A stretch of 64,000 bases of DNA from Burkholderia mayonis. Its GTDB lineage: Bacteria > Pseudomonadota > Gammaproteobacteria > Burkholderiales > Burkholderiaceae. The position numbers and the translations under genes are program-made. The notes beneath the pieces are model-generated. The model worked only from the letters and a program-made list of their open reading frames with translations, was not told the DNA's origin and did no database searches. Of the stretch, positions 5,820 to 6,542 are shown in pieces; within the stretch, counting starts at the first letter, position 1, and the number at the start of each line of letters is the position of its first letter. The stretch lies in the NCBI RefSeq assembly GCF_001523745.2, contig NZ_CP013386.1, positions 3,534,001-3,598,000 on the forward strand. The letters run 5' to 3'.

Positions 5820-6542
5820 ATGAGGAAAGTTCTCGATAGAATCCGCGTAAAAAAAGAATCCCTTGCCGATCATCCGTTCTTCCCGCAGCTCGCCAACGTC
5901 ACAGTTCCGGAAATCAAGGAATTGATGCGGACATGGGCGCCGCTTCTCATTCATTTTGCGATGACGTTCAGGGACATCAACCGGATGTACTACCACTACA
6001 AGACGCCGGCGGACAAGCTGCAGCGGGCAATCAACGAGCATGTCGACGTCGACAGCTCGCATTGGCAGCTGATGGTGGCCGATCTCAAGACCCTGGATGC
6101 GAACGACAAGGCCTTCGATTGCGAAAGCGCGATCAAACTGATCTGGGACGATACCGGCGAACCAGTTCGCGAGTACATGTATTCGGTCATGGCTCGCGCG
6201 CGGCGCTGCGGCGACTGCCCGCTGTTGCGAATGGCCGCGATGGAGGCCGGCGAAGCGACCTCGAAGATCTTCTTCACCACATCCCGCAGGATTGCGGCCG
6301 CTTACGAGGCGGATACGGGCGACAGGCTGTGTTATCTGGGGGCCGAGCACATCGACAGCGAGATGGATCACCCGATTGATTCATCGGTCTTCCTCGAACA
6401 GCCGTTATCCAATGAAAAGCGGGCCGAAGCGATCGCGCTCGTCGACGAGCATTTCAGCAGCTTCCGGGCGTTCCTCGATTACAAATATGAAATCAACCAG
6501 CTCACTCTGACCGATCGACATTTCGAACATTCGCCAGGCTGA
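5820..6542 (+). CDS. Putative heme-oxygenase-like diiron protein (HDO/TenA-like fold)
   Basis: 240 residues, all-helical in character, lower in GC than its neighbours. The ATG at 5820 is chosen for its good ribosome-binding site (AGGAG, about 8 bp upstream). I do not recognise a named family. The C-terminal motif H177-x3-E181-x2-H184 (in GAEHIDSEMDH), Glu145 exactly 32 residues before H177, and E73/H81 further upstream resemble the ligand pattern of heme-oxygenase-like diiron oxidases such as CADD (E, H, E, then H-x3-D-x2-H). In that reading the usual Asp is Glu. The function is inferred only. The gene sits between a transposase remnant and an inverted-repeat element, which suggests horizontal gain. 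Confidence 0.5.
   Translation: MRKVLDRIRVKKESLADHPFFPQLANVTVPEIKELMRTWAPLLIHFAMTFRDINRMYYHYKTPADKLQRAINEHVDVDSSHWQLMVADLKTLDANDKAFDCESAIKLIWDDTGEPVREYMYSVMARARRCGDCPLLRMAAMEAGEATSKIFFTTSRRIAAAYEADTGDRLCYLGAEHIDSEMDHPIDSSVFLEQPLSNEKRAEAIALVDEHFSSFRAFLDYKYEINQLTLTDRHFEHSPG

What the first reader, a model, noticed from the sequence alone, without database searches (positions are those of the whole stretch)
5820..6542. Possible unrecognised heme-oxygenase-like diiron enzyme in an acquired patch
The protein has no family that I know, yet carries H177-x3-E181-x2-H184, E145 exactly 32 residues before it, and E73/H81 upstream. CADD-type HDO enzymes use E, H, E and H-x3-D-x2-H with a 32-residue gap at the same place. 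Glu for Asp at the middle position would be unusual. The E73-H81 spacing is one longer than in CADD. Such enzymes make or break unusual metabolites, and the gene sits alone among mobile-element debris.
Basis: partly seen in the sequence, partly recalled or inferred. Interest (0 to 1): 0.7.

Follow-up and report, generated by a model that had tools for sequence, protein, structure and literature searches.

The report
AetD-like diiron enzyme in Burkholderia
This gene encodes a relative of AetD, a rare iron enzyme that cuts an aromatic amino acid down to a nitrile, and a sister copy elsewhere in the genome heads a halogenase-like gene cluster that hints at tyrosine rather than tryptophan as the starting material.

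The parts
5820..6542 (+). AetD-like HDO gene, 240 aa; predicted diiron ligands D78, H81, E145, H177, E181, H184; positions aligned with AetD substrate-pocket residues: F46, F50, G144, T147, F151, Y172, F215, K222
   Evidence: ORF; AetD homology; model and fold comparison; residue table; AetD residue roles from PMC11611611 and PMC10654658 and PMC13108848
5807..5811 (+). AGGAG ribosome-binding site, 8 nt before the ATG; AGGAGTTT also precedes the paralogue's ATG
5520..5819 (+). AT-rich (36% GC) leader; no sigma-70 consensus site was found between 5300 and 6900
5291..5509 (+). C-terminal remnant of an integrase-core (IS3-like, by my reading) transposase
   Evidence: rve_2 E 3.1e-9, rve_3 E 1.2e-6; PHROG transposase E 4e-15
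6572..6741 (.). 170-bp element with 31-nt terminal inverted repeats (87% complementary); partial relatives elsewhere in the genome

Best explanation
The gene encodes an AetD-type HDO. It should bind two Fe(II) once its amino-acid substrate has bound Fe1 through amine and carboxylate, activate O2 to a peroxodiferric state, and oxidatively cut the side chain of an aromatic L-amino acid, leaving an aryl nitrile (AetD-type) or a methylarene (SktA-type). My lead substrate is L-tyrosine (about 0.4, giving 4-hydroxybenzonitrile or p-cresol), with L-tryptophan second (about 0.3). In the paralogue's cluster the product would next be halogenated by the flavoenzyme and changed by the Rieske-type enzymes. 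The window copy would do the same or a neighbouring reaction alone, or feed that cluster in trans. Shown by computation: ORF, homology, predicted fold, aligned ligands, conservation of the gene series. Inferred: iron, O2 chemistry, substrate, product, link to the cluster. Confidence by step: AetD-type diiron enzyme 0.95; cleavage of an aromatic amino acid's side chain 0.7; nitrile rather than another product 0.5.
Against: No activity, metal or product was measured. Identity to AetD is about 21-22%, and the window's clade is a sister group, not AetD's own (63 bits against 120 and 158 for two members of the other clade; tree without AetD). SktA is predicted to have AetD's ligand set but gives a methyl product, so ligands cannot settle nitrile against methylarene. 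T. fusca and a Bathymodiolus endosymbiont have Asn at 184 and P0009 has Asp at 181, so the ligand set is not strict. The window copy has no partner gene. Against tyrosine: in T. dabaoshanensis the cluster abuts pyrrolnitrin-type genes whose PrnA is a tryptophan halogenase, and the host has a 94% PrnA too. The flavoenzyme's function is unproved: none of the 25 NCBIfam models shown passes its cut-off (CmlS 264 of 900, monooxygenase QhpG 198 of 240); FADH2-dependent halogenases such as PltA (7e-44), pyrrole enzymes as I recall, also score well above Trp halogenases, while PltM, a phenol-type one as I recall, is at 2e-8; and the family is huge (1396 proteins at E<=1e-100). K222's place rests on alignment, not coordinates, and F221 lies over 5 A from L-Trp in AetD.
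Confidence: 0.7

Rival explanations
1. Same enzyme class, but the substrate is L-tryptophan or a halotryptophan: the product is indole-3-carbonitrile (AetD-like) or skatole (SktA-like), and the cluster's flavoenzyme acts on the indole product.
For: The two characterised relatives act on (bromo)tryptophan. T. dabaoshanensis has the cluster directly followed by PrnA-, PrnC- and PrnD-like genes and the host has a 94% PrnA on its second replicon, so 7-chlorotryptophan may be present. The window copy and P0002, unlike the other 9 rows of A1, have Phe at 46, the position of AetD F44 that clamps the indole.
Against: 2 of the 4 cluster-bearing genomes (G017, T. fusca) have no PrnA match. Relatives of the flavoenzyme pair with tyrosine phenol-lyase in 3 of 3 genomes. 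F215 fills the AetD S214 position that contacts the 7-bromine, which argues against 7-halotryptophan, although Phe is there in 17 of 18 rows of A2. K222 puts a charge where AetD has F221.
Confidence: 0.3
2. An HDO of AetD fold with different chemistry, for example N-oxygenation or desaturation-lyase action on another amino acid.
Against: Sequence and structure are far closer to AetD than to these, and the AetD active-site Tyr (Y172) and the Phe of aux helix 2 (F50) are in 18 of 18 rows of A2.
Confidence: 0.17
3. A decaying orphan copy with no present function, stranded by transposition.
For: No partner genes; transposase remnant and inverted-repeat element beside it; no consensus promoter found.
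Against: Full-length frame with ribosome-binding site, all ligands intact, and an orthologue in B. oklahomensis differing at 10 of 240 residues, none at a ligand or mapped pocket position.
Confidence: 0.08

Closest known systems
AetD, nitrile synthase of aetokthonotoxin biosynthesis (PDB 8JI2-8JI7, 8TWN, 8TWT, 8TWW, 8ZVG, 8ZVH)
   Same: Same fold over residues 1-232; same six ligands (D-x2-H, E, HX3EX2H); Y167 = Y172, F48 = F50, F44 = F46
   Different: 21-22% identity; S214 to F215, F221 to K222, M139 to G144, A142 to T147, I146 to F151; AetD lacks the window protein's residues 37-38, as do all 9 rows of the other clade. AetD's own gene neighbours (recalled) are not found beside the window gene
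SktA, 5-bromoskatole-forming HDO (review PMC13108848, passages only)
   Same: Predicted same ligand set as AetD; T142 and F214 of SktA match T147 and F215 here
   Different: T139 of SktA is G144 here. T147 (16 of 18 rows) and F215 (17 of 18) are the norm in the wider family and do not single out SktA
CADD and other HDOs (UndA, BesC, HrmI, HamA)
   Same: Heme-oxygenase-like helical bundle; 3-His/3-carboxylate site
Pyrrolnitrin genes prnABCD
   Same: PrnA-, PrnC- and PrnD-like genes are contiguous with the HDO cluster in Trinickia dabaoshanensis and present on the host's second replicon; prnB was not looked for
   Different: A separate pathway with no HDO as I recall it; 2 of the 4 HDO-cluster genomes have no PrnA match

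Membership tests
HDO superfamily | heme-oxygenase-like helical bundle | tested here: met
   AlphaFold2 model pLDDT 87.5, pTM 0.86; Foldseek and VIA against the PDB
HDO superfamily | 3-His/3-carboxylate set on three core helices | tested here: met
   By alignment to AetD: D78, H81, E145, H177, E181, H184.
HDO superfamily | dinuclear iron and O2 activation | not testable with these tools
   Needs purified protein
AetD-type nitrile synthase | sequence homology to AetD | tested here: met
   phmmer E 2.4e-16 over residues 1-212; profile E 1.2e-59 over 232 positions
AetD-type nitrile synthase | D-x2-H, E and HX3EX2H ligands plus active-site Tyr (Y167) and hydrophobic aux-helix-2 residue (F48) | tested here: met
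   D78/H81, E145, H177/E181/H184, Y172, F50
AetD-type nitrile synthase | S214 contacting the 7-bromine | tested here: not met
   F215 at that position; a substrate-specific trait, not one of the fold or chemistry
AetD-type nitrile synthase | conversion of an aromatic amino acid to an aryl nitrile | not testable with these tools
   Needs an enzyme assay
SktA (skatole-forming HDO) | sequence homology to SktA | not tested
   No SktA sequence was at hand; only residue remarks from the review
CADD | Glu as first ligand before His in core helix 1 (as stated in the finding; recalled) | tested here: not met
   E73 is not conserved in the family; D78 is invariant and aligns with AetD D76
TenA / heme oxygenase | match to the family models at the curated cut-off | tested here: not met
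   No TenA or heme-oxygenase model among Pfam or NCBIfam matches up to E 10; HMMER's filters can drop weak matches

The most novel reading that the evidence does not exclude
The window's clade is a separate family of one-enzyme nitrile synthases that act on L-tyrosine, giving 4-hydroxybenzonitrile. In the conserved HDO-flavoenzyme-transporter-Rieske series of Burkholderia and Trinickia this would be halogenated to a natural halo-hydroxybenzonitrile. The window copy would be a second, freestanding member whose altered pocket (F46) gives it a different substrate preference.
Probability: 0.2. Interest if true: 0.82.

Novelty: new variant of a known kind. Interest (0 to 1): 0.62.

Why it matters
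AetD and SktA are the only tryptophan-cleaving HDOs named in the review passages that I read. A second subfamily, shared by Burkholderia and Trinickia and tied to a conserved halogenase-like/Rieske gene series, would show that one-enzyme side-chain excision is used beyond the cyanobacterial AetD pathway and perhaps beyond tryptophan. It makes a direct test possible: which aromatic amino acid, and nitrile or methylarene. My searches of the held papers brought up no report of AetD relatives in Burkholderia or Trinickia, but this is listing-level only: one search showed 12 of 167 papers and 10 of 11, the Burkholderia and Trinickia papers in them were not opened, and the library lacks most subscription journals.

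Tried and rejected
CADD-like reading with E73 as ligand: rejected, because E73 varies and D78 is invariant. TetR_C_24 and Vif Pfam hits (E 0.025 and 0.15, below their cut-offs) and OspC3 in the PDB (E 0.55): taken as chance. Tryptophanase as the flavoenzyme's partner in the g11 genomes: my first reading of the sequence, rejected because the tyrosine phenol-lyase model passes its curated cut-off (734.8 and 732.2 against 720.7) while the two tryptophanase equivalog models stay below theirs; a broad subfamily model named tryptophanase (PRK13238) does pass. 'SktA-like pocket' as evidence for skatole: weakened, since T147 and F215 are the family norm. Phage origin: no hit in phage records or PHROGs; none in PADLOC. 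Rfam in 4500-9000: none at the gathering score. First genome-contig scan gave no relatives; the alignment scan gave 4 loci. The wider protein search with A2 (26 proteins) added mainly fragments and enterobacterial proteins. Folds absent from the VIA list count as inconclusive, not excluded.

Limits: genus, family and order searches use one genome per species from an incomplete set (65, 398 and 399 genomes). The neighbourhoods of P0002, P0003 and P0004 were not seen. Gene picking in scripts was by a length and codon-position rule, so some neighbours may be missed. MetG- and TamB-like neighbours of the 32% subfamily, the substrates of RadH, CndH (3e1t), PltA and PltM, the halogenase signature residues and the prn enzyme roles are named from recall.

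Full report
WHAT IS THERE. The open reading frame is real and correctly placed: 5820-6542 on the + strand, 240 residues, ATG preceded by AGGAG at 5807-5811. No Pfam match passes its cut-off and NCBIfam, PHROGs and PADLOC list none.

LIGANDS. AetD binds Fe1 through H79, H172 and E176 plus the substrate, and Fe2 through D76, E140, E176 and H179; variants with Ala at Fe-coordinating residues lost activity (PMC10654658, passages and sections 7 and 9; PMC11611611, passages and section 6). These map to D78, H81, E145, H177, E181 and H184. Over the 18 rows of A2, D78, H81, E145, H177, Y172 (= Y167) and F50 (= F48) are in 18 of 18, E181 in 17 of 18 (Asp in P0009) and H184 in 16 of 18 (Asn in T. fusca and a Bathymodiolus endosymbiont). 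F50 in place of the extra Glu of SznF and RohS marks the substrate-triggered class in the authors' scheme.

PLACE IN THE FAMILY. A midpoint-rooted tree of 25 sequences, AetD not among them, parts two clades. AetD's affinity is with the other clade: two members of it score 120 and 158 bits against AetD where the window protein scores 63, and AetD lacks residues 37-38 of the window protein, as do all 9 rows of that clade. The window's clade has its own invariant residues, including H211 and K222, spaced like F215 along the last helix; AetD has F221 at 222 and S214 at 215. In A1 only the window protein and P0002 have Phe at 46, as AetD has F44; the other 9 rows have Leu or Ile.

THE TWO COPIES. 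The genome (6.59 Mb, two contigs) has a second copy at 68% identity. It heads a same-strand series: HDO, FAD halogenase-like enzyme (Pfam Trp_halogenase E 6e-38), a Na_H_Exchanger-family transporter, a Rieske gene and a VanA_C gene (the Rieske domain itself was tested on the G017 gene). With five Trinickia fusca proteins as queries, each is found in the same order in one piece in the host, in G017 and in T. dabaoshanensis, covering 86-100% of the query with no stop inside the gene, while the window holds the HDO alone. Searches: 7 of 65 genus genomes match at E<=0.001; 16 of 398 family genomes match, of which 4 (G000, G017, G164, G185) reach E<=1e-136 and the other 12 have best E of 8.5e-28 or weaker. 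G164 and G185 are, by contig position, the T. dabaoshanensis and T. fusca loci. So the series is present in 4 of 4 strong-hit genomes, T. fusca being the source of the queries. In an order-wide sample at E<=1e-30 only the host itself matched (1 of 399). B. oklahomensis holds proteins orthologous by sequence to both copies (P0002, P0004), and P0003, a cluster of 51 sequences named B. pseudomallei, is closest to the cluster copy.

WHAT THE CLUSTER SAYS. The flavoenzyme's nearest solved relatives are 8zop, RadH, CmlS and 3e1t (E 5e-77 to 4e-62); PltA is at 7e-44, PltM at 2e-8 and PrnA at 1.5e-6. None of the 25 NCBIfam models shown for it passes its cut-off; CmlS and the monooxygenase QhpG are the best. 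At E<=1e-120 it occurs in 7 of 398 family genomes: the four above and three of another genus, which show no HDO match. In all three of those it lies next to a beta-eliminating lyase; two of the three lyases were tested with NCBIfam and both pass the tyrosine phenol-lyase cut-off, while the tryptophanase equivalogs do not pass theirs; the third is 99.6% identical to one of them. I read this as one kind of flavoenzyme fed by two different enzymes that strip an aromatic amino acid. That favours a phenol, hence tyrosine. Against it, T. dabaoshanensis carries the cluster flush against PrnA-, PrnC- and PrnD-like genes, and the host has a 94% PrnA on its other replicon, which keeps tryptophan open; G017 and T. 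fusca have no PrnA match. The flavoenzyme family is very large (1396 proteins at E<=1e-100), so its substrate is not proved.

MECHANISM. By analogy with AetD, substrate amine and carboxylate would coordinate Fe1, O2 would give a peroxodiferric species, and the side chain would be cut, with nitrogen kept (nitrile) or lost (methylarene, as SktA; PMC13108848, passages only). Nothing here separates nitrile from methylarene.

SURROUNDINGS. The gene lies in lower-GC DNA (56%, leader 36%, window 67%) downstream of a transposase end and upstream of a 170-bp inverted-repeat element with partial relatives in the genome and a RES/Xre toxin-antitoxin pair. No consensus promoter was found.

VERDICT. An HDO, yes; a new superfamily, no. 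It is a new subfamily of the AetD kind, with a sister copy in a gene cluster for which I found no report. Papers: the three named above were read in passages or sections as stated; all others were seen only as search listings.

Noticed in passing
L010:12001-13503 and L028:7944-9512 (E. coli and Piscirickettsia plasmids): A 500-522 aa 'hypothetical protein' is a tandem HDO: the N domain has all AetD-type ligands, the C domain looks by eye like a degenerate second copy (2 proteins translated whole). An HDO match occurs in 331 of 72,556 plasmid records (265 Escherichia, 36 Piscirickettsia, 22 Salmonella, 8 others); 4 Escherichia or Piscirickettsia records were opened.
   Followed up: partly
L033 (Trinickia dabaoshanensis): HDO cluster and PrnA-, PrnC- and PrnD-like genes are contiguous on one strand.
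   Followed up: partly
L055-L059 (three genomes of one genus): Relative of the HDO cluster's flavoenzyme (56% identical) next to a tyrosine phenol-lyase-type gene in 3 of 3 genomes.
   Followed up: partly
L022-L027 (other Burkholderia): A more distant AetD-like gene (32-33% to the window protein; 120 bits to AetD for the one tested) sits between what look like metG and a tamB-like gene (recalled names), beside a methyltransferase-type gene (PF00891 in the one tested) picked in 4 of the 5 full loci; in G017 the gene is shortened.
   Followed up: partly
L007 and L006 (Comamonas; Bathymodiolus endosymbiont): Relatives of the window's clade (41-43%) lie directly before an FMO-like flavoenzyme, and in Comamonas also before a P450 and another Na/H-exchanger-family gene.
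   Followed up: partly
window 6572-6741: 170-bp element with 31-nt inverted repeats; 9 further partial matches in the host genome, of which one (67% identity) spans most of the element.
   Followed up: partly
window 6813-7406 (-) and 7283-7786 (-): RES-domain toxin and Xre/MbcA/ParS-type antitoxin pair just downstream of the HDO gene.
   Followed up: no
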